Below are positions 1,694 through 32,763 of a stretch of DNA of 64,000 nucleotides, piece by piece. This DNA is from Lobosporangium transversale. Its lineage: Eukaryota > Mortierellomycota > Mortierellomycetes > Mortierellales > Mortierellaceae. Both the position numbers and the translations under genes were made by a program. The DNA lies in assembly GCF_002105155.1 (NCBI RefSeq), contig NW_019028994.1, positions 124,001 through 188,000 of the forward strand, written 5' to 3'. Each line of letters begins with the position of its first letter. Position 1 is the first letter of the stretch. Under the pieces are notes generated by a model, which saw nothing but the letters and a program-made list of their open reading frames with translations, was not told where the DNA came from and ran no database searches.

Positions 1694-2315
1694 GCTAATG
1701 AATTATAGAATGAGCTGCGCCTTGCGGTGAGCACAGGGTTGATCAATTAATATCACGTGCAAAATTTTACCCACAGACGTTTTTTCATCATTGCATGTCT
1801 GTGCCTGAACTTTTATTTTTTAATTTGGTGGCGCACATACCGTTGGACAGGGATCTGACATTGATCATTTGGGCCAAGCAAGAGCTTTTTTTTGGAGTAA
1901 CATTGGGGGAATTGTTATACTAAAGAACCTAATCTAAAGCCAAGTAGTATTTCCAACCTGTGGGATGCATGGAGATCTCCCGATCTTTCTAAGGAAAGGA
2001 CTAGCAGCAGGTTCCTGGTGTAAAGTTTGCTGAACATAGCTGACTGACACTACACTATGATCGGCCTAGGAGATACGAATGAAAAGTGACTCAAAGTCTG
2101 GCAGCAATGGTCGAGGGTACGATCTTAGTTCGCTTCAAAGTGATGACAGTGACACATGTAGTCGGAATCATGATCCCTATCATACGACCCTTATGAGAAA
2201 TAAAGTTACTCTCCGGTCTTAATCTCCACAAGCAAAGGCTGAATGATTTGCCCGTCATCTCTATAAAGTGCTCTTTCAGAGTATCGTATGTCATCGATCT
2301 TTTTCTCTCTCTCTC

Positions 2316-2346
<31 letters not shown>

Positions 2347-2531
2347 CATTCTCATTTCATTTTGCTCATTCAACGTTCTTTTTATTTCATCTCATTGTCT
2401 TTCGAGAGTTGTGTATAACGTCTTCACTCCGCTCTTCCTTTCCACTCTTTCACTCCTACCTTATATATATTCTCATTAAATACCTCTTATTCACTTTATC
2501 AATTGCTCGTCACCAGACAGGAATAGAGATC
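1694..2531. other. Intergenic region between divergent SEN54 and carrier gene
   Basis: No gene is seen. The stretch serves as the shared upstream region of two divergent genes. It holds a (CT)n tract at about 2304-2320 running into a 25-base T run to 2345, on the sense strand of the carrier, which is a typical pyrimidine-rich fungal promoter or leader feature. Confidence 0.5.
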
Positions 2532-4672
2532 ATGGGTAACCTTCGATCGCAGATGGTTCATGTCCGCTACATTCTCGCTTCTACTTTTTTTTTTTATGGC
2601 TTTCTAACAACCCTCTAATGTCTATTCTGATCTATTGGAACCATTAGCAAGCAGCGTTAACGATTTCATTGCAGGCAAGTGGATTGACATTCTCCTTATT
2701 CTTTTCAAAGGATTGTTGTTTTTTTTTCTATGCATGCTATGATATGCATGCTTGGATCGCTTGAAAAAAAAAAAAAAATTTTTTTTTGTCCCCCATTTTT
2801 GTCCTTTCCGGTCTAATCCGTTTCAATTGCACATGTTTTTTCTCTTTGACATGTCGCACGGAATTTGCCATGTGGAGTTTTGATCTTGATTATCATCGTT
2901 GCAAGGGATTGTCTGTTTCTCTTTACTAAATTAGCCAAGATATTATATCTCTTCTGTTTTGTTTTTCATTTTGTTACAAATAGGTTATATCAGTGGAGTA
3001 GCAGGTTTGATTGTCGGAAGTCCTCTGGATGTTCTCAAGGTAAGTAAATCGATCAAAAACTGAGCGAGTTTAGTACGGGGAGATTTGTCTTGGTTTAATC
3101 AGGAAACATATTCAATACAATTGCGATCCGACAGTGTCTTTTTTTTTGTTTTTCTTCTCAAAACCTATATGCTTTTTCTTTTTTTTTTTTTTTTCTTTTC
3201 TTTTTTGATCAACGTAGGTTCGGTTACAAGCTCAAGCCGGTTCGGACATAGCCAGAAATGCTTCTACAAACAAGAACAATTTGGTTAGCATGGTTCAAAA
3301 TGAAGGAGTAAGTCTTGATAAGAAAAAAAAAAAAAAAAAAAAAAAAGAAAGTCTGGAGCTTGGCAGTAAAAGCTGATAGAAAGCATGAACAACAGTAACA
3401 ACAGCAACAGTGACATGCATGATTCTGCAAAGAGGGGAAAAAAAAAAAAAAAGAAGAAAACGCTTACTCAAAGTATCATCTTTGTCTTGTGCAACGTTTC
3501 TGAAATTAAACCTGGAAAACAAAACAGTTCGGATCATTGTTCAAGGGTATCACCTCACCCATCATTGGCTTGGCGGGACTCAATTCGATCCTCTTTGCAT
3601 CATACTCGGCATCCATGCGATTGTTCGAGACACTTTCACCCTCTCCTGTGTCACCGTTCTATGCCAGTAATGGTGCAGAATCATACCAGTCTTTGTCACA
3701 TGTTTTTGCAGCAGGATTTGTAGCGGGCGTTGCTTGTTTCCTAGTCAGTACACCCACAGAGCTGGTCAAATGTAGAGCGCAGGTGATCGCCTCACGTCTG
3801 GATCCTACTTCCTCAGCTGCAGCACAACGTGCCATCATGAGTGAATCGAGCTCGTGGCAAGTAACGAAGGATGTTCTTCGGCGGTTTGGACTCCGAGGAT
3901 TCTATCAAGGAGGTCTCGTCACCATCCTTAGAGACGCTCCTGGATACGGAGTATACTTTTGGTAATCGTTATTAATGACTCTTTATTTTAATATGTCTTG
4001 TATTTTATCAAAGCAACAACAAAAGAGTGACAATCTAACTGTCTTATTATTATTATTATTATTATTTATATATTGTTGCTGTTGCCTTAAATAGGTCTTA
4101 TGAAGGGCTGAAGAGGGCATTAGAAATCCCACCAGGAGAGACAGGTGGAATCAACACATGGAAGCTGCTTCTTGCTGGAGGTGTTGCAGGAATTTGTTCT
4201 TGGGTTTCTGTATACCCATTAGGTAAAGACAACAAGGCAAAAAAAAAAAAGATCAGTTTCTTGTAACTTTGGCTAACTTTTATTTTATTTTTTTTTTTTT
4301 GTAGATGTAATCAAGACGAGACTTCAGACACAACCACACCTTGTAACTACAGACCCATACAGCAATATCCGGACACTTCCTATCACAGCGGCTGCCCGCA
4401 TCCCCACTCCAACCACTAGCCTCCTCTCAAAGACCCATACAGATCAGCGTGGAGGATTGTTGCACCAGACAAGCCGTCAAGGACATTCACAAGTATCATC
4501 CTCAGTACCATACAAGGGCATGGTCGACTGCGCATTACGATCTTACAGAAGTGAGGGCTTGGGTGTATTCGTGCGTGGGATGACACCGGCAGTCCTACGT
4601 GCTTTCCCAGTCAATGCAGTGACCTTTTTCGTCTACGAGCTGGTGATGGCAGAGCTGCAAAGAAATGACTAG
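2532..4672 (+). CDS. Mitochondrial carrier family (SLC25) protein
   Basis: Seven exons: 2532-2535, 2648-2674, 2984-3039, 3218-3307, 3528-3961, 4095-4222, 4305-4672, giving 368 aa. The protein has the three carrier signatures, one per repeat: PLDVLKVRLQ, PTELVKCRAQ and PLDVIKTRLQ, each ending the odd helix of a two-helix repeat, so six membrane helices in the inner mitochondrial membrane. The family exchanges metabolites across that membrane. The substrate cannot be read here, though the GYISGVAGLIVGSPLDVLK start resembles carnitine/amino-acid type carriers (SLC25A20/45/47/48). The inferred first coding exon is only four bases (ATGG), chosen because it restores phase to M-A-S-S-V-N-D-F. Intron 2 has a GC donor (2675). 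The last repeat carries an unusually long matrix loop of about 60 residues after the third signature. Confidence 0.88.
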
Positions 4673-4748
4673 ATTGCTTAGACATTTAAAGTGAAATATT
4701 AAAAAAACAGTGATTAGATTTGACCACTACACAGGTTTTTAGTTCATT

Positions 4749-4791
<43 letters not shown>

Positions 4792-5510
4792 AGGATGTGT
4801 GTCAAGCCGGGATGCCTGCCACTCCTTTAAAAATGAGCCAATATGCTCCTACGCGCAGTATATAGTGAAATGGACCCTGAGGGTTACAGATTGATTGTAC
4901 ATTAGGATTGTAAAGAGATACTCTGTCAAACTTATCAGGAAACAGATTCTAGATCGATTTTATAGAGAATTTGCGCAGGACTTAAAAAAGCAGATTTAAT
5001 TTAATATCAATGCATATCCCTCTTTTCTGCCCCTCACTTTCTGGTTCCACTCCTCTCGATCCACCCTTCCTCATCCACTCCTGATCCCACCCTTCTTATC
5101 CTCAGCCGAAATATGGCAAGTCATCCATTTTCACTTTTCAAGTCTGATTTTGACTGAGGACGAGCTCGAGAAGGGTGGAAGCAGAAAAATAGATCAAGAA
5201 GGATGGGTCAAGAAGGGAGGAATGAGAGGGGGTAGATCGAGAAGAGTAGAACCAGAAAAGTGGGAGCCAGAAAGGGGCATAGAAATAAACTTGGCTTATA
5301 TCACGTGAAAATGTTTATTTATTTATTTATTTTTTTCGCGTCTTTTTTTTTTAATAGCGTATGTGTGCAAGTCCTACAAGTGTGTTTTCCCCTGTGTGCT
5401 CAGCTTTCTTACTCCAGCCTCGACTCGCCCTCACATTCATCCTTTCTTCAGAGAATTCTCTCTAGAAAAAAAAAAAAATAAAACAAGAACAATAATAATA
5501 ATAGACCAAG
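4673..5510. other. Intergenic region with T/A inverted homopolymer
   Basis: No gene is seen. A run of 9 T (4747-4755) is followed directly by 34 A (4756-4789), able to fold back in part. Downstream, 5160-5275 is purine-rich. The last 100 bases are the presumed leader of MCM7. Confidence 0.5.
4747..4789. repeat. T9A34 inverted homopolymer
   Basis: A T run is joined directly to an A run. The same arrangement occurs at 8300-8339, 15546-15588 and 49179-49216, three of them inside introns of MCM7, RPN7 and MSP1. Confidence 0.9.
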
Positions 5511-8886
<3,376 letters not shown>

Positions 8887-22651: not shown

Positions 22652-24760
22652 TGATCGCAGGCCTTTTGTGTTCTAGAAAATGAATTAGACCGATGGTATG
22701 GAGTGATGGTAGGCAATATTAACTTCCTAACCTGTGAATGCATCGGACAGATCCCCAATGAACGAAATGTTTGCGGATATCCGGTCAATCACGATTACAT
22801 GTAGTTTTCTTCTAAGGACTACAGTTGACCCCAAAATGCTTTCCACTTTGGCATATGAATCAGTAGAGCAAAAGAAGCAAGAAGCGGGAAGGCGTAAAGG
22901 ATAGTCATGTCAATAATACTTTTCAACCATTGCTGTGGTGTGTTTAGGCTGTGTGCCAGAGAGTTCAGATTTTTATTATTGTTTCCCGCGCAATATGGAC
23001 GTTCATTTTATTTTTATTATTTTATTGCATTGCCTGTTTGGACTTTGCCAAATCGACTGGCTTACACAACGATCTTGATAACCTTGTGGTGCTCTGCTGT
23101 CTCTTTGATTTTATTTCGGTTTTGCATTTGCTTGATCTCTCCTGTTGATCGCATGCAAATATAAGGTCATTCATTCTCTCTTCTAGGTGAATTGACTTTT
23201 TTGTAGGTAAAGAATAGCAATGCTCATTGTTGTCGTCTTTATATTTTATTTTTATTTTTATTCATCTTTTTTTTTTTTTTTACTCCAAACTGATCAACCA
23301 AGTAAGAGAAAAAATATTTATTTACAAGAAAAACGTATCTTCCATGACAGTGGGCAATGGAAGGATCAACAATAAAGATCATGTCCTTGAAACGAAAAGG
23401 AGCAATACTAAAAAGTATCTTTCTCTACTCTCCACTCCTTCCTCATCTTTTGCTCACCATATGATCCATATGATCCATATGATCAGAGGCAACCGAACAT
23501 TGTCATCCCCATCAACAACAAGTCCTTTATTCCTCTAGGGTATTTATCTAACATCAGTGTTCCTTCTTTGACCGCATCCTTTTATATATATATATCTATC
23601 CATTGCTTTCTTTGAATGGTCTTCAATGATGGGTCTTTGGCCTATTCAGAAAGAAAAACAAAAAAAAAAAAAAAACGTTGGGGACGATATTGGATTGACG
23701 AGTGCCAGACTCAATACGGGTATGGGTTCGTCATGAAAGGAGCCTGGAAATGACTACAGATGATCAAAAGGATTTGTGTAGCCAAAGTAGAACTGTCTTT
23801 CTTCAACCGATAATAGAAAGTGGGGGAGTGAAGAGTGAGAATGAATGCATGGCGTGAATACGTTGTCGCTGGTGATCGACCAATGATTCCTTTCATCATG
23901 TCCACCCTTATCCCTGACCATCTTTGATGGAAATGCATTAATACATTGATGGCTAGATGAGCTATCTCTGAGGAGTCCCTCTGTATCATCTACGAAGCAA
24001 AGCAGTGTCAAGGATGATGATGATGGTGATGGGTATAGCATCAGCAAAAACGCTCAAGGAACACAGCAACAACATCATAAAGTGTTTTCCTTGTCTTGCT
24101 TCTTTGAAAAGCGACGCAAATTCGCACTGGCTCGTACACACTTTTTCCGAAGAAGGAAGTCAATCAGCTCCACCATCGTCCTTTTCCTTTTTTTTTTTTT
24201 TTTTTTTTTTTTTTCTGTTTTCTAATTCCTATTCTAATTGCCATTGCTCCCTCAATTACTACAGCTCCATCTCCCCTTTTACTTCTTTGGATCTTCCTTT
24301 TAGCGATTGTCTGCCACAACGAACGTGTTATTTTTACTTTATATTTCTGTGTATTCGACTATAAGATCTTTTGCCATAGCCGCGCACATACCCTTTTACA
24401 CCAGCGTATCCGTAGGCCATCTTCCTAAGCGCCCCATCTTTATCTTTTTTATAATATTTATTTCTTTCCTTCTTCTTGTTCAACTTCTTCATTCTCCTCT
24501 ACTCTTCACCGCTAATACAGTGTCTTGTTATTTCTTGTTTGTTGCTCTTTTCACTTTTCGCTGCTCAGTACAAGTGTGCTCTCTCCTTATCATCTCTCGC
24601 AGCATTTCCAGGCTGCAACGCTGAGCCGTACTCCGACAAAGTCCTCTCGCAATACCTGGCAACATCAATACTAATATCGCCGCCAAGGCGATTACTGCAA
24701 ACCCATCCACACCAAAAAAAGGTATCTCTTGTGACAACCAACTACACTTCAACCTGACAG
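22652..24760. other. 2.1-kb region upstream of the bromodomain-kinase gene
   Basis: It contains no ORF I can defend. A T run lies at 24190-24214, and a pyrimidine-rich leader-like stretch at 24220-24600 precedes the first recognised exon. The true 5' exon of the bromodomain-kinase gene probably lies here: no ATG is seen from 24301 to 24760, so the start codon must be upstream in another exon or lie within the first recognised exon. Confidence 0.4.
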
Positions 24761-25441
24761 ATATTCACGACGAGGCAGCATTGCCTCCACAAGCCCTTCG
24801 GGGAAGCCAACAAGCCATTATCGAGGCCATCAACAACAGACGTCGCGCTGAACGATCTCATGAGATGATTGCGCTTGCTAGAGGGTCACTTGCCACAGGC
24901 AGTGGTAACCATCATAACCCTTCTTCTTCAACTAAGCATTCTTCTGCATGGATGAGTCCATCTCGCCTATCTTCACAGCAAAACAATCGCTCTCTTGGTG
25001 CAGGTAAAAAAAAAAAAAAAAAAAAATATATAGAAAAAGGCTTCAAATTTAGCCAAGCAATATAGCAAAGTGAATCACATCTGCCCCAAGACATCCTAGA
25101 CATCGCTGATCACTTTTTGTCTTCCTGTTATCTGCAATGAATAGTGCGCCAAGATGGTCAGCCTATAGCCATACCGTTAAGCATAGATTCAGTATCATCT
25201 GGTCTCAAGATTCGTATCCCTAGAGATTTGCCTAACTTGCCAGAAGCCTTCCGCAAGAGGGGAGCTGTTCGTTCCCAGTCATCCACAACAGCATCAACAA
25301 GCACCGGATCAGGAACACAACCTGGAATCAAGCGCAGCCATAGTACTATGGTACAAGAAGACCACCCGGAATCTAATGATTACGTTTCCTATGGTAATCC
25401 AAAATTTGACAATGTACATGTAAATAAAACGGCGGATGATG

Positions 25442-25472
<31 letters not shown>

Positions 25473-28400
25473 AATACTCAATAACAATTATCATTATCAT
25501 TATTATTTTTAACTGTCATAATCTTAGCTGTACAAGGTGAAGGTCCCAGGATCAAGATTGTTAGAAGACATCCACCAGCACCAGGATCCATCTATGTGTC
25601 ACCACATCTTGCTGGTGCAAAGAATTTGGCCATCCGCACCGTCCGAAACCCTACTTCAACATCTGCCTCAACCATTAATAATGCCTCCACATCATTGCTA
25701 TCAGCACCTTCATCGGCTTCAGCTCCCATTCTACCTCCTTCAGTTCAAAAGCATCGCAATCACTCTAAATCAAAGTCAAACTCACCGAGCTCCACACCAG
25801 CTCGCATCCCCTCACCGGCTGCTGGCGTTTCAGAGACGACTATTGTATTACCAATATCATCACCTGCGGCTGAATCTTCAAGGAGCGCACAAACAACTGC
25901 TGGCTCACGATCAGTAGATGGGGTTCTGCAAATGGCCACTGCGGGCAGTGGCACACCAAACAATTCGGCATCAGCAGCAGCCAAGGATGAACAGAATTTG
26001 TCCTCATCAATATCCTCAACGATTCTGGACTCTGAATTTGATGCTCTAAAACCTATTGAGCTTGTGCGCGTGGGCATGGCCATCTTGGGCCTGTTGACCA
26101 GCAACACATTCTGTAAGAGCTTTATCAATAAGGTGCCGACCACACTAACTAACTACCATTTGACGATCAAGAAGCCTATGGATTTGACAACAATCGAGCA
26201 CAAGCTGTACAAAACCCTGGCCCTTGCTGGAGCGGAGTCGGGTACATTTTCCAATACGCTAATTAAATCGGCTGAATGGCTTAGCTCGGGGGTCACAGAA
26301 GGATATGCGACCCTACAGGACTTTGAACGCGATCTGAGGAGGATCTCTCAGAATGCCACATATTACAATTCACCAACTCATATCATCTACAAAGATGCAC
26401 AGGAGTTTCAAAACTTATTCACCAACCTATTAACTAGTTATCGTCAAGGGTAAGATCCAATATTTTAGAAACATAAGGTTCTTGTTAAAGTTTATTTGTC
26501 CTTAAGAATGCACTATCGCTATAACTGTAGTTGCTAAAAGCGAGCTTGCTTGATGGGAATAGGAAACTTATTTTGAATATTGCACTACCACAAGAAGCAT
26601 ATAGACCGGAAATTATATCAATATCGGAACCAGGGTTCGTAAAGAGTCGACACTTATGCTGGACGCGATGAGTATAAGACTTGTTTCTTGGGTATCAATG
26701 ACTTATTTTTTTTATTTTTTATTTTTTTACTTTGAATTCAATAGTCCGCTTTATCTCTTCCGAGCTCATACCTTGCGAGAGATGGAGCGTAAAATGACTG
26801 ATATTTCGACCGATCTCTACGCGAGCTTTCATCAGCCTATTTTCGACATTTGTGCAGAGCAAATTGGCCAGCTCTCTCCTGAAAAACCTCGCTTTGTTAG
26901 GATGTACATCAATAAGAATAGGAGTATTTTAGCGAAAAGTCGAGACGAGCGATTTGCCAGGATAGCCATCATCAGTGACCTTCAAGTGGGAAAACCTTAC
27001 ACTGTCTCCAACCCTACACCAGATAGTCCTAGCAACGCCAACTCATCTATTAGCGCCAAACCAGGTACTGGATCAAACGGTGCTGGTAATGCAGGAACGA
27101 GCATGGTGCATATGACGGCCAAAATCCTGATTGGCAAACCAATTGGTGATCGACATGACATGGTCACCGTTGGCGATTTGGACTGTCCTAACGCATGGAT
27201 TACAGTTGCCTGTGTCAGAGCGTTGGAAATCGATATTGAAGTCCCCGCCAAGTTTGACAAAATCCTCGCAAAGATGCGGCATGAGGTTGTTGCGTACTCT
27301 TCGGACGCAAAGATAGGACTAGAACACCAACGGTCTTTTGCTGACGCCTTAGGGTTGCTTTTACCTTCATCTGCTAAAGGTAGTTCGATCGGACAACGGT
27401 CTTCCATTCCTGGCACGAGCCCTGCTCTTAGCAGCACAGCTACTGCACCCCAAACTATACCTCTGCCCTCATCCAATGGACTTGGACTCGGGATTAGTGT
27501 CGCTGCTCCACATCCTACGCCCACACCTGCCCCAACTATAACAACACGCGCCTCGGCATTAGGGGGCACGCTTGCCCAGAAAAACACTGCAAACGATCAA
27601 AAGACCGAGAGATTCGTTAAACACAAGTGGGTGGATCTTCATGACCAGGGACCTGACGGCCAATATCTAGTCAAACTACGGATACCCAGCCTGCAGAAGG
27701 CATCCCATCGTCCAACACCAGTCTCAGCGGTGACCTCTGTCACAGCAGCTCCACCATTGCATCCCATTGCAGACTCGACACCTTCCACGTCGCTCTTGCC
27801 CACCCGCGTCAATGTTCTGTCAAGTCAGGTGCCCGCCACTCCTTTTTCTGGAGCTTCCGAAAGAGAATCCTTATCTGCTCCTGATCGTATTATGCTAAAG
27901 GAGCAGATCACAAAGCGAGGATACAAGATGCTTCAAGACCTGAAGGCTACTGCCAATGAAAAGAATGTTCCTTATGTCCGTTGGAGCGCCATTGAGCCGA
28001 CACTGACCATTGACTCTGCGCATGGACTGTTCAAACGGATCTATCACGTTCGTGGTGAAGAAGGTCTTGTGGTTCAAAATTTTAAAGAGATGGATGCAGA
28101 GTCGTTTGAGCAGAGGGTACGAGAAGTCGCATGTCTGCTCAAGCTACGAGATTTGGAGGGCGTTGGACAAATTCAGTCAATCATTGATGATGAGGATGAT
28201 CGGCTCGTTGGACTTTCAATGACAAAGTATGAGTACACTCTCAAGCAATACGCAACCAATGCACGTCGTCACCCCACCCCATACCAAAAACTGTGTCTTA
28301 TTCAGGAGATGGTCTCAGCCATGTGCGCTATCCATCAGGCTGGTTTAGCGCATCGGGATCTGAGCGAAGTCAATATCATGGTGAATGAAGACCCTAATAA

Positions 28401-28968
28401 CTTGCTAGAGGACGGTTCCCCTCGACCTCATGTAAAAGTGATTGACTTTGGAAAATCTGTCTTTGTGGATCGGGATGAAGTCCAGCGTTGGAGTATGCAA
28501 GAACATATCCCAGAAGATGAATTGGCACTGCTTCCCTTTGTGGTCCTTCCTCCAGACCATGGCTATAAACTGTATAGATCTATCTTGACGCTTCCCCGAA
28601 CTAAGAATGATCACACGCCGTTACCTCCTGTAGACCCTAGGTCCGAGGACGTGTACTCACTAGGCGTATTGATATGGAGGACATTCAGTGGCAAGTCACC
28701 GTGGAATGGTGCGATTGAAGATGATCTAAAGACGATTCGTTATTTGGTGTCGACTGACTCTCAAATCAAGTTTCAGCTGGAGCGAGAGATTACAGGGCCC
28801 GTCTCCCGTGAATTGTTGCTACGCTGTCTGACAGCCCAAGCCGATACTCGATACACGACGCAACAGCTCAAAGAATGGCTGGATCAGCCCAGTGTTGCTG
28901 CAGAATTACTAAAGGAATTTGAGGCGCTGGGAGGTGGCCGCAAGAAGCTAAAGAAGAATTTGGATTAA
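24761..28968 (+). CDS. Bromodomain-protein kinase fusion (N-terminus unresolved)
   Basis: Exons 24761-25003, 25145-25393, 25528-26449, 26563-26634 and 26745-28968 give about 1236 residues, all joins in phase. Residues are counted from 24761. The N-terminal part is Ser/Thr/Pro-rich and probably disordered. A bromodomain lies at about 342-470: FINKVPTTLTNYHLTIKK, PMDLTTIEHKL, DFERDLRRISQNATYYNSP, with the acetyl-lysine-binding Asn context YYN. A middle region of unknown type contains RFARIAIISDLQVGKPY. The C-terminal kinase-like domain (about 923-1215) has HRDLSEVNIMV (HRD near 1031), VIDFGKS and DVYSLGVLIWRTFSGKSPW; a glycine loop is weak and the usual APE region is replaced. HRDLS-type loops are seen in fungal FunK1-like kinases. 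It would read acetylated chromatin and phosphorylate or scaffold nearby proteins (inference). The donor at 26635 (GTTCGT) is atypical. Confidence 0.82.
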
Positions 28969-29188: not shown

Positions 29189-29221
<33 letters not shown>

Positions 29222-29367: not shown

Positions 29368-29994
29368 TTAACATAAAATGGATGTAAAGACACTGATGAC
29401 GATCAGGATGGTCGCTAATGAAGTGGAGACCTTTTGGATAGGGGCAGCGGACGACCCTGATCCCGATCCCCCCCTGGCTCCGGTGTGGACGCCTGCAACT
29501 ACCCCGGTTTTAGGCTTACTGCTGTCTGAACTGCCGCCACGTCCACCACCACTACGTCCACCACCACCACGGCCACCACTGCTACCCTTTCTTTTGATGA
29601 GCGGATGTGTCTGGACGACTACTGACGGGAGGATATTAGGGGTCTTGGATAGTACGTCCTTGCTGTTGCTACCGTCCTTTTTGTCGTTGTCCTTGAGGTC
29701 TAAAAAATCAGATAATATCGTGTCAATGTCCTCGTGCTGGTGAAGCTCCTTGTTCTGGCTGTGGATCGCTTGTTGAGGTGCAGAAGCTAGGACGGAATTT
29801 GGATCCGAGATCTTGAAGGCAGGGATATCAACTGAGTTCTTGGGGCTGCTTAAATTTTTGTGAGCGTCTAAAAGGTGTTTTCTATTGTCCACAGGAGATG
29901 CATTGGCAAAAGTAGAGGCGAAAGTGACGGAGAGGAGAGCGATACAGGCAAGTGTGATTGTAGACCTGATTGATATTGTTTTTTTAGTTGTCAT
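29368..29994 (-). CDS. Secreted Gly/Ser-rich protein with GPI-anchor-like tail
   Basis: An intronless ORF of 208 aa, no recognised family. From the ATG at 29994 it has a signal peptide (TITLACIALLSVTFASTFA, cleavage before SPVDN), a charged middle with DIDTILSDFLDLKDNDKKDG, a dibasic site (LIKRKGSSG) and a Gly/Ser/Arg-rich segment (GGRGGGGRSGGGRGGSS). The C-terminal hydrophobic stretch STSLATILIVISVFTSILC follows a small-residue run (GSGSGSSAAP), as in GPI-anchored fungal wall proteins. Upstream in-frame ATGs (30093 and before) would add a Ser/Thr stretch without improving the signal peptide. Cell-surface location is inference. Confidence 0.65.
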   Translation of the reverse strand: MTTKKTISIRSTITLACIALLSVTFASTFANASPVDNRKHLLDAHKNLSSPKNSVDIPAFKISDPNSVLASAPQQAIHSQNKELHQHEDIDTILSDFLDLKDNDKKDGSNSKDVLSKTPNILPSVVVQTHPLIKRKGSSGGRGGGGRSGGGRGGSSDSSKPKTGVVAGVHTGARGGSGSGSSAAPIQKVSTSLATILIVISVFTSILC

Positions 29995-32763
29995 GATGCT
30001 GATGCTGGTGGTGCTGATAGTAGAAAAAGAAGGTGAAGAAAGTAAAGAAGAAGAAGAAGAAGTAGTAGTGATGATGGGAGGACGAGAAGGCATGGTATGA
30101 GGAAGTGACGAGACTGTGGACCAAGTTGAAGGATAAGGGACGACGGCCGTGTTTTTGAGCGTAGCTTTTTTTTTTTTTTTTTTTTTTTTGATGAGTGACT
30201 TTGCAAAATGGACCCCTTGTAAGGAATTTGTGGTAAAAGACTTTTTGTTTGCTTGCTCGTTTGTTGTTTGTTTGTGGATAAGCAACAAGTGATGGGGTGC
30301 GTAAGGAGAAGAGAGGGACCACGTGTACGTGAACGCGTTTTGTGACTAGAGCCCTCTTTGAATAAGAGACGAACGACGGGAAGGAAAAAAAAAAATAAGA
30401 GTCGAAAAATAAAGACGTGATTTTTTACTAGTGTTATAGTTGTTAGTTGAAGAAAGTAGAAAAGTAGGGGAGAAGAAAATAGAGAAAAAAAAAAGGGTGG
30501 GGAGCCTGAAGGTATTTATTCAATTCTTTATGGCAATAAGGTTCATCCACATGTCAAAAGATGCTTCTACTTCTCTTGACGTGCTGACTATGTCAGTCCT
30601 TCTTTACAGAGCACATGTACATGTACAGAGGGTAAATGACCGTCGTAACAACGAACAGTAGTTGTGGTGTTGAGCATGCCGCCGTCCAGAATTTCTTTTT
30701 TTTCTTTTTTCTTTTTTTTTGTACACCATTTGCCCATTTGCCCAACTGAGAGCAATGTACTGTACCAATGACACCGCCACTGGTACACAAGCACCTCTGA
30801 AATAAATTTTTTACCAGTCCTTCCTTGATGCGCCGTGAAAAAAAAAAAAAAAAAAAAAAATCCTAGCGAAGGAAAAATATAGAAAATGGGAAGATTATAT
30901 GGGCAGACCGAAAGTGAGGAAAGAGAATGAAAAAGGGGGGAAAGGGGGAAAGGAGGAAAGGAATGGATATAGCCCTAAATTCTAATGCATTCTTATCGAA
31001 TGACTATCACCATAATTGACAACCACACATCTACGCGAGATGATGTGGTGGCAAAGATCTCCCATTTTACGTCATCTCTTCTTTTCGCTCTCTTTCTTAC
31101 AAAAACCACTATGATACCCAGGATATGTTTATGAACCTAGCCTAGAACCCTAGAGATTGATTAATATGATTTATACGTGACGCGTCTTTTATGCAACCAC
31201 GGGCTAGATAACACTTTATCTTTAAAAAAAAAAAAAAAAAAAAAACTCTGTGTTCGACAGCGTACCATACGAGGCATATCAGTGCATGAGGGCCACTATA
31301 TCCTCATAGTCGAGATAAAAATGGCCCTCCGTATCCTCAAACTCTTACATTCTTGAGGAAAGATGGAAACGGAAAAAAAAACACTGATTGTTGCATGTAT
31401 TCCATCATATCAAGTAAACAAACAAAACGCCGTAGTAATTAATGTAACCATAAATATCGACCGCATACTGAGACATCAAATTTCTTTGTTACAGCATTTG
31501 AAAAGCATCGAGGAAGGCAGGTTTTTTCCTTGGAATAAGCAGACAAGCCCAGCTAGTAAGGAGTTGACCCAGAGAGTCTCAATATAAGATGAGCGAAAAA
31601 CAAAATGAGATTGAAGCAGTTTGGTACTGGTTTACCAGCACTAGTACTATTAAAAAGATTGTAAATCGTTCATTTTGGAGCTCCTTCGCGCAGCAGGCGC
31701 AGTGTTGTTGACACAGACATCATAGAGCATTTTTTGTGATTTGTAATTCGTGTAACAGTGGCTGCGATGATCGGTGTGCACATTGTAAACTTTATTCCTC
31801 GACTTTTGCGCAGTATAGACCCTATTGTTTATCTTCAAGTGAGGAATAGAACCAAAAACGAATAATATGCTTGGTGCTAGGGCCTGATGTCAACTGATAG
31901 ATGTTCCCCTTTTGACCCCTGTTCCTACTCTCTATTGTCCTCTCTGCCACAAGGGAAATGATACTCCCGTCATCCTAGCCTTGTTATCATGTGTAATTGT
32001 ACATGTGGCAAATGTCGATTTTATTTTATCTTTTTTTTTCATATCTTCCTGAACTTCCTCTATTGATCTAACTTTGGTTACTAATACCCTAATACCGATA
32101 TCTATTATGCCCTACTAAGCGCTTTAGGTCTTTGCAGTCTTTCATTTGTGTGTACGACTTACGCAGCAATAGTGATGCAAAGGCGTGATGAACCGGGGTC
32201 ACCATAAAGAATCCATGCCATGAATTGTTGTCGCACGTCTCTTTGGATTTGGCTATACAACCCTCCGTTCATGGCATGTGCCCTTATATGGCAGGTATAC
32301 GGCCGTATCGGGCCTTAACGCTTAAGATTGAGGACTGTTAACGATTATGTCTGCAGCGGATGCAGCCAGACATCTTTGTGGTTGATTCTTGTGATTATAG
32401 TGGCGTTTATAGCTATTATTTTTGTAGGGTGTTTGACCCTTTTCAAGACAAGATCTATTGCGTTTATAATTGCTCTATGGTTTCAACTTTAGGTACATCC
32501 TTTGATCTTGATGAAATATACCGGGTAATCTGATAGGCAAGATTTTTTGGAGGGAAGGGGAAGTCTGGAGGCCATACTGGCATGAATTGACGTATTGGCG
32601 CCATGTATTAAGGAGCTGGGTTAACTTTTATTTCTTTTAATAGCATATAGCCGTATAATCATTATACCAGTTGAGAAGATGCCAGTTAGGAAAGAAAATA
32701 CTATACCAGAAAAGAACTCTTGTCAGACGTGAGTGCTACAGAGGTTCTAGGTTGAATGTAGTC

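What the first reader, a model, noticed from the sequence alone, without database searches (positions are those of the whole stretch)
24761..28968. Bromodomain fused to a protein-kinase-like domain
One spliced gene encodes a clear bromodomain (PMDLTTIEHKL, YYNSP) and, about 450 residues later, a kinase-like domain with HRDLSEVNIMV and VIDFGKS. The large final exon carries the kinase and the previous exons carry the bromodomain, with all phases closing. Animal TAF1 and BRD4 are reported to have kinase activity, but with other architectures. A bromodomain plus an HRDLS-type fungal kinase domain is not one I know as described. It suggests direct coupling of histone acetylation reading to phosphorylation.
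Basis: partly seen in the sequence, partly recalled or inferred. Interest (0 to 1): 0.8.

Follow-up and report, generated by a model that had tools for sequence, protein, structure and literature searches.

The report
Fungal bromodomain kinase with relocated lysine
A gene of an early-diverging fungus joins an acetyl-lysine reader to a protein kinase; the same joined protein recurs in related fungi, and its kinase seems to have moved a key ATP-contacting lysine to a new place, as animal WNK kinases did.

Summary
In detail: one gene encodes a bromodomain and a protein kinase domain, both above Pfam cut-offs. The pairing is not a chance join: 86 of 109 homologues found carry both domains; those with names are Mortierellomycota, Glomeromycotina or Mucoromycotina. 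A second copy lies about 300 kb away. The FunK1 ('HRDLS-type fungal kinase') label is not supported for the window copy (16 bits against 24.1).

That position is Gln in 106 of 106 rows, while the third glycine of the glycine loop is Lys in 105 of 105. HRD, DFG and the alphaC Glu are intact in every row that covers them. This matches the lysine relocation of WNK kinases, so I favour an active, unconventional kinase over a pseudokinase.

Between the two domains lies a domain whose predicted structure resembles EVE/YTH folds, by structure only.

Best reading: a Mucoromycota-type chromatin-reader kinase. Activity and ligands are untested.

The parts
24742..25003 (+). first recognised coding exon; 5' end open (start codon not located; conserved NLTDIH...GSQQAIIEAINNRRRAERSHEM)
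   Evidence: tblastn of P0011 30-198 starts at 24742; N-terminal homologues
25145..25393 (+). coding exon 2 (GLKIRIPRDLPNLPEAFRKRG conserved motif)
   Evidence: in-frame junctions; homology
25528..26449 (+). coding exon 3, low-complexity linker then bromodomain
26094..26405 (+). bromodomain PF00439, with an insertion between two helices relative to Mucoromycotina members
   Evidence: hmmscan 46.2 bits, residues 353-456; genome-frame hits at G000:C36:150091-150207 and 150304-150405; alignment
26367..26369 (+). codon of the presumed acetyl-lysine-contacting Asn (YYN)
   Evidence: N in 68 and H in 24 of 92 rows with that column
   Evidence: P0001 472-495 matches at 79% identity, P0011 at 57%
26745..28968 (+). 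last coding exon: middle domain, disordered linker, kinase, stop
26746..27360 (+). middle domain, predicted fold resembling EVE/YTH (PUA-like) domains
27913..28935 (+). protein kinase domain
28033..28035 (+). Lys at the third glycine of the glycine loop (PKA position 55; GLFKRIY)
   Evidence: K in 105 of 105 rows with that column
28075..28077 (+). Gln at the VAIK-lysine position (PKA 72; VVQ)
   Evidence: Q in 106 of 106 rows; aligned to position 34 of PF07714, which calibration shows is the catalytic Lys
28123..28125 (+). alphaC Glu (PKA 91)
   Evidence: E in 107 of 107 rows
28351..28359 (+). HRD catalytic triplet (HRDLSEVN)
   Evidence: D in 105 of 105, N171 in 105 of 105 rows
28444..28452 (+). 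DFG triplet
   Evidence: D in 104 of 104 rows

Best explanation
The gene encodes a nuclear chromatin-reader kinase of a family found only in Mucoromycota sensu lato in these searches. Order of parts: N-terminal conserved motifs and low-complexity linker, bromodomain, EVE/YTH-like (PUA-like) domain, long disordered linker, C-terminal protein kinase domain. Shown here: the gene structure, the conserved domain order, and the conserved residue pattern. Inferred: nuclear location; the bromodomain docks the protein on acetylated histone tails (its Asn is kept in Mortierellomycota); the middle domain adds a second contact; and the kinase phosphorylates chromatin-bound substrates. I infer that the kinase is active but unconventional: the ATP-phosphate lysine has moved from beta3 (now Gln) to the third glycine of the glycine loop, as in WNK kinases, while the alphaC Glu, HRD Asp, catalytic-loop Asn and DFG Asp stay in place.
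Against: No activity, binding or localisation data exist. A lost VAIK lysine is a hallmark of pseudokinases. HRDLSEVN also has Ser where Ser/Thr kinases usually have Lys (recalled), and there is no clear APE motif. hhalign against WNK1 puts Lys55 on WNK1 Lys233 but leaves the beta2-beta3 hairpin ungapped, so that the Lys three residues after Gln72, not Gln72, falls on WNK1 Cys250. That Lys is Arg in 24 and Gln in 2 of 106 rows, so I reject it as the catalytic Lys. Gln72 to the alphaC Glu is 16 residues in Mortierellomycota and Glomeromycotina but only 13 in Mucoromycotina, short beside the 15-19 I recall. The bromodomain Asn is His in 24 of 24 Glomeromycotina and Mucoromycotina rows that cover it, and AT-hook cores are at chance level in Mortierellomycota, the window's own group (3 of 71, shuffled mean 2.28). 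In 18 of the 109 homologues no bromodomain is annotated (5, 13), so the fusion is not universal or the annotations are cut. I saw no transcript for the window gene.
Confidence: 0.6

Rival explanations
1. Same fused chromatin protein, but the kinase domain is a pseudokinase: it binds ATP or a partner and works as a switch or scaffold on chromatin, without phosphoryl transfer.
For: VAIK Lys absent in 106 of 106 rows; catalytic-loop position 168 is Ser in 105 of 105 (usually Lys in Ser/Thr kinases, recalled); no clear APE motif in the invariant list.
Against: HRD Asp, Asn171, DFG Asp, alphaC Glu and Gly52 are invariant across three deep clades wherever the column is covered; pseudokinases often lose some of these. 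An invariant Lys appears exactly where WNK keeps its active Lys. RIO kinases share DLSE..N catalytic loops (recalled) and Pfam RIO1 matches weakly, below its cut-off, in 11 of 15 members.
Confidence: 0.3
2. An ordinary active kinase whose catalytic Lys is the Lys three residues after Gln72 (QNFK); no relocation took place.
For: hhalign to WNK1 leaves the hairpin ungapped and pairs this Lys with WNK1 Cys250.
Against: It is Arg or Gln in 26 of 106 rows. It would lie 13 residues (10 in Mucoromycotina) from the alphaC Glu (three less than the Gln spacings), shorter than kinases I recall (15-19). PF07714 aligns Gln72 to its Lys position. The predicted strand ends at exon residue 446, just before it.
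Confidence: 0.07
3. Two neighbouring genes, a bromodomain protein and a kinase, wrongly joined in the frame model.
For: Some annotated homologues carry only one part: 5 of 86 kinase only and 5 of 86 bromodomain only, 13 of 23 kinase only. The NCBI model of the local second copy (P0063) starts after the bromodomain exon.
Against: 76 of 86 and 10 of 23 homologues are annotated as one protein, in three deep clades; the junction is bridged by a conserved exon.
Confidence: 0.03

Closest known systems
WNK kinases (with no lysine)
   Same: VAIK Lys missing; Lys at the third glycine of the glycine loop (GSFKTVY against GLFKRIY); other catalytic residues intact
   Different: Gln, not Cys, at VAIK; HRDLSEVN catalytic loop; no close sequence kinship seen (WNK is not among the 60 of 768 rows shown or the 56); fused to a bromodomain
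POMK (SGK196)
   Same: migrated beta2 lysine, essential for activity (PMC10211241, passages read)
   Different: POMK also moved its HRD and DFG roles and phosphorylates a sugar; here HRD and DFG are canonical
TAF1 and BRD4 (bromodomain proteins reported to have kinase activity; recalled)
   Same: acetyl-lysine reader and claimed kinase activity in one protein
Fungal FunK1 kinases (PF17667)
   Same: HRD[LI]S-type catalytic loop (recalled); the second local copy's exon reaches 24.8 bits
   Different: window copy 16.0 bits against a cut-off of 24.1; 8 of 15 members match, best E 0.00039; the profile also rings in 4 of 14 control genomes, so it is not very specific
EVE / YTH domains (PUA-like fold)
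   Different: no sequence match: none of 15 members hits EVE or YTH in Pfam; hhalign to EVE is within shuffled decoys
Bacterial MADS6 / BREX PglW defence kinases (NCBIfam)
   Same: MADS6 is the best curated NCBIfam model for this kinase, E 2.7e-12
   Different: 46 bits against a cut-off of 460; similarity limited to the kinase core

Membership tests
Bromodomain (PF00439) | profile match over the curated cut-off | tested here: met
   46.2 bits against 21.7; 15 of 15 A2 members match at E up to 10, best 5.3e-18
Bromodomain (PF00439) | Asn that contacts acetyl-lysine | tested here: met
   present in the window; N in 68 of 92 rows, H in 24 of 92, the latter all Glomeromycotina or Mucoromycotina
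Bromodomain (PF00439) | binds acetylated histone peptides | not testable with these tools
   needs a binding assay
Eukaryotic-type protein kinase (PF00069) | profile match and fold | tested here: met
Eukaryotic-type protein kinase (PF00069) | HRD Asp, catalytic-loop Asn, DFG Asp, alphaC Glu | tested here: met
   105/105, 105/105, 104/104, 107/107 of rows covering the column, 110 rows in all
Eukaryotic-type protein kinase (PF00069) | beta3 VAIK lysine | tested here: not met
   Gln in 106 of 106; register checked
WNK-type lysine relocation (mechanism) | no Lys at VAIK and Lys at glycine-loop position 55 | tested here: met
WNK-type lysine relocation (mechanism) | the relocated Lys is required for activity | not testable with these tools
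   needs a kinase assay of a point mutant
WNK family (kinship) | closest sequence kinship to WNK kinases | tested here: inconclusive
   WNK is not in the rows shown; hhalign aligns WNK1 over 236 columns at 22% identity, ordinary kinase-level similarity
FunK1 (PF17667) | profile match over the curated cut-off | tested here: not met
   window copy 16.0 bits against 24.1, 18.5 for the kinase alone; against this, an exon of the second local copy scores 24.8 bits
EVE / YTH (PF01878 / PF04146) | profile match | tested here: not met
   no such match among 15 members at E up to 10; hhalign to EVE score 14.5, decoy maximum 24.6 of 60 shuffles; YTH was not tested by hhalign
EVE / YTH (PF01878 / PF04146) | PUA-like fold | tested here: inconclusive
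EVE / YTH (PF01878 / PF04146) | aromatic modified-base pocket | not tested
BET proteins (BRD4 type) | two bromodomains plus ET domain (PF17035) | tested here: not met
   one bromodomain stretch and no ET match in the window protein; no ET match in the families listed for 15 members

The most novel reading that the evidence does not exclude
A three-part chromatin sensor: one protein reads acetylated histone (bromodomain) and a modified DNA or RNA base (EVE/YTH-like domain; a candidate is 6mA, reported abundant in early-diverging fungi) and answers with a kinase whose relocated lysine, as in WNK1, could also make it sensitive to anions. It would be a further independent instance of lysine relocation, after WNK and POMK, and the first I found fused to a chromatin reader.
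Probability: 0.1. Interest if true: 0.92.

Novelty: new variant of a known kind. Interest (0 to 1): 0.7.

Why it matters
A 2007 survey called WNKs the only functional eukaryotic protein kinase family without the VAIK lysine (PMC1821047, passage read), and a 2023 review adds POMK (PMC10211241, passages read). A large, deeply conserved fungal family with the same glycine-loop exchange would be a further, apparently independent case. Because the lysine is invariant in every row that covers it, the idea can be tested with a single point mutant. A standard protein kinase fold fused to a bromodomain would also give a simple genetic system for asking whether reading acetylation directly steers phosphorylation. 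Homologues occur in the arbuscular mycorrhizal and mucoralean lineages.

Tried and rejected
Rejected: FunK1 membership of the window copy (the second copy's exon does pass the cut-off by 0.7 bits). Two-gene artefact. The Lys after Gln72 as catalytic Lys.

Tried without result: EVE profile against the middle domain (within decoys). Foldseek on the middle domain (no E of 0.001 or better). Pfam at E up to 10 on 15 members gave no EVE or YTH. A scan of bacterial and archaeal genomes with two peptide patterns found no relative (76 pattern matches, 0 confirmed). N-terminal exon search found homology only to 24742 and no start codon. The profile search reached, beyond the family, proteins that match by their bromodomain, on a capped candidate list. 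Paper searches for a described bromodomain-kinase of these fungi or for other relocated-lysine kinases showed none among the rows listed; two searches listed 20 of 106 and 20 of 67 papers, one search listed 12 of 13. Only open-licence PMC papers are held.

Limits: one search scored only the 7992 candidates sharing most words and one search likewise 7974; one search was not capped (4715) but covers proteins of about 385-1225 aa. Absence from other phyla is absence at this sensitivity. Homologue counts are clusters, not genomes. Clade labels were set by me from the organism names.

Not checked: whether the Logan-derived proteins (P0018, P0131 and others) come from RNA, which would be transcript evidence.

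Full report
WHERE. The window is G000:C36:124001-188000 of a 42.7-Mb genome. The length of C36, 818200, equals that of the contig of an NCBI protein from Lobosporangium transversale (P0063), and that protein's start is encoded in locus L012 of the same contig. I infer the host is L. transversale (Mortierellomycota).

GENE MODEL. It reads KLILNIALPQEAYRPEIISISEPG, is flanked by AG and GT (donor GTTCGT), and fits the phase. Being 72 nt long it is invisible to a phase check. Homology also extends upstream of 24761 to 24742 (P0011), and six homologues share the SQQAI(I/V)EAI segment upstream of the first ATG. The start codon was not found.

FAMILY. One search found 86 proteins and one search added 23, 109 in all. 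76 of 86 and 10 of 23 carry both Pfam domains in the precomputed columns; 5 of 86 and 13 of 23 show only the kinase, 5 of 86 only the bromodomain. By the organism names in those tables, the named ones are Mortierellomycota (71), Mucoromycotina (23) and Glomeromycotina (8); 7 are unnamed. No Dikarya, chytrid, animal or plant member was found in these searches. A careful tree of 104 kinase domains puts each named group in its own clade (100/100, 100/97, 100/100); it is unrooted, and the tool warns that deep joins between long branches may be false. The window's genome has a second copy at about G000:C36:447-452 kb with bromodomain, middle and kinase exons; its NCBI model P0063 lacks the bromodomain, and one of its exons scores 24.8 bits for FunK1, just over the cut-off. 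Depositors' names such as 'Receptor-interacting serine/threonine-protein kinase 1' or 'Histone acetyltransferase kat2b' are not borne out by the Pfam domains listed.

THE KINASE ACTIVE SITE. On an alignment of 109 homologues plus the window, rows with a letter in the column give: Gly52 105/105; position 55 Lys 105/105 (third glycine of GxGxxG in ordinary kinases); position 72 Gln 106/106 (the VAIK lysine); Glu91 107/107; Asp166 105/105; position 168 Ser 105/105; Asn171 105/105; Asp184 104/104. Five rows lack one or both of the two key columns (P0070, P0084, P0132, P0133, P0140). Both key columns are among 53 invariant of 336 kinase columns filled in at least 100 rows.

REGISTER CHECK. Curated profile PF07714 aligns Src and BRAF fragments so that their catalytic Lys is profile position 34. 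The same profile puts the Gln of the window and of P0037 at 34 directly; the starts of the aligned stretches of P0073 and P0131 imply the same, and P0001 agrees by extrapolation. The other four of eight family proteins have best stretches that start later and say nothing. Against this, hhalign with WNK1 alone pairs Lys55 with WNK1 Lys233 but, without a gap in the hairpin, sets the Lys three residues after Gln on WNK1 Cys250. That Lys is Arg in 24 and Gln in 2 of 106 rows. Spacing from Gln to the alphaC Glu is 16 residues in Mortierellomycota and Glomeromycotina and 13 in Mucoromycotina; the latter is short, and the alternative Lys would be shorter still. I take Gln as the VAIK position.

MEANING. 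[quoted passage not shown] Reviews describe WNK1 Lys233 from beta2 (PMC4718504, passages read) and POMK with a migrated beta2 lysine, essential for activity (PMC10211241, passages read). The fungal family shows the same exchange with HRD and DFG intact. I think it more likely active than not. Other features (Ser at 168, no clear APE) keep a pseudokinase possible.

BROMODOMAIN. The acetyl-lysine Asn is present in the window and in 67 other rows (65 Mortierellomycota, 2 unnamed); it is His in 17 of 17 Mucoromycotina and 7 of 7 Glomeromycotina rows that cover the column. Acetyl-lysine reading is therefore plausible for the window's lineage and doubtful elsewhere. AT-hook-like cores ([RK]GRP) occur in 14 of 23 Mucoromycotina members (mean 0.38 in shuffles) but at chance level in Mortierellomycota (3 of 71, shuffled mean 2.28).

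LITERATURE. Searches were full-text searches. The rows listed show no paper on a bromodomain-kinase of these fungi; some searches listed only part of what they found. PMC8778642 and PMC11258239 were searched for the relevant words; neither contains 'bromodomain'. Subscription journals are mostly not held.

VERDICT.

Noticed in passing
L012 (G000:C36:445001-454000), 2224-6736: Second copy of the same gene in this genome; its NCBI protein model (P0063) starts after the bromodomain exon, so the fusion is hidden in the public annotation.
   Followed up: partly
window 29368-30345 (-) and L012 7238-8560 (-): Both copies are followed by a convergent minus-strand open frame for a secreted-looking protein; the two share a faint SDPN-region similarity (E 0.034 in a two-sequence blastp), perhaps a trace of segmental duplication.
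   Followed up: partly
P0137, P0138, P0139, P0140: A divergent branch of this kinase (three named Mucoromycotina and one unnamed protein) begins at or near the kinase and shows no bromodomain in its models; loss or truncation not resolved.
   Followed up: no
P0067, P0069, P0071: These three homologue models stop at VGLSMTK, close to where the second local copy has an intron; probably cut gene models.
   Followed up: no
window kinase, 27913-28935: Among NCBIfam models the kinase scores best against the bacterial defence kinase MADS6 (E 2.7e-12), with PglW at 1.2e-5, both far below cut-offs; whether those also lack the VAIK lysine was not checked.
   Followed up: no
window 24190-24214, 25006-25026, 25442-25470, 29191-29216: Long A or T homopolymer tracts lie in introns and flanks of the gene, some near splice sites, a possible reason for poor automatic gene models.
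   Followed up: no
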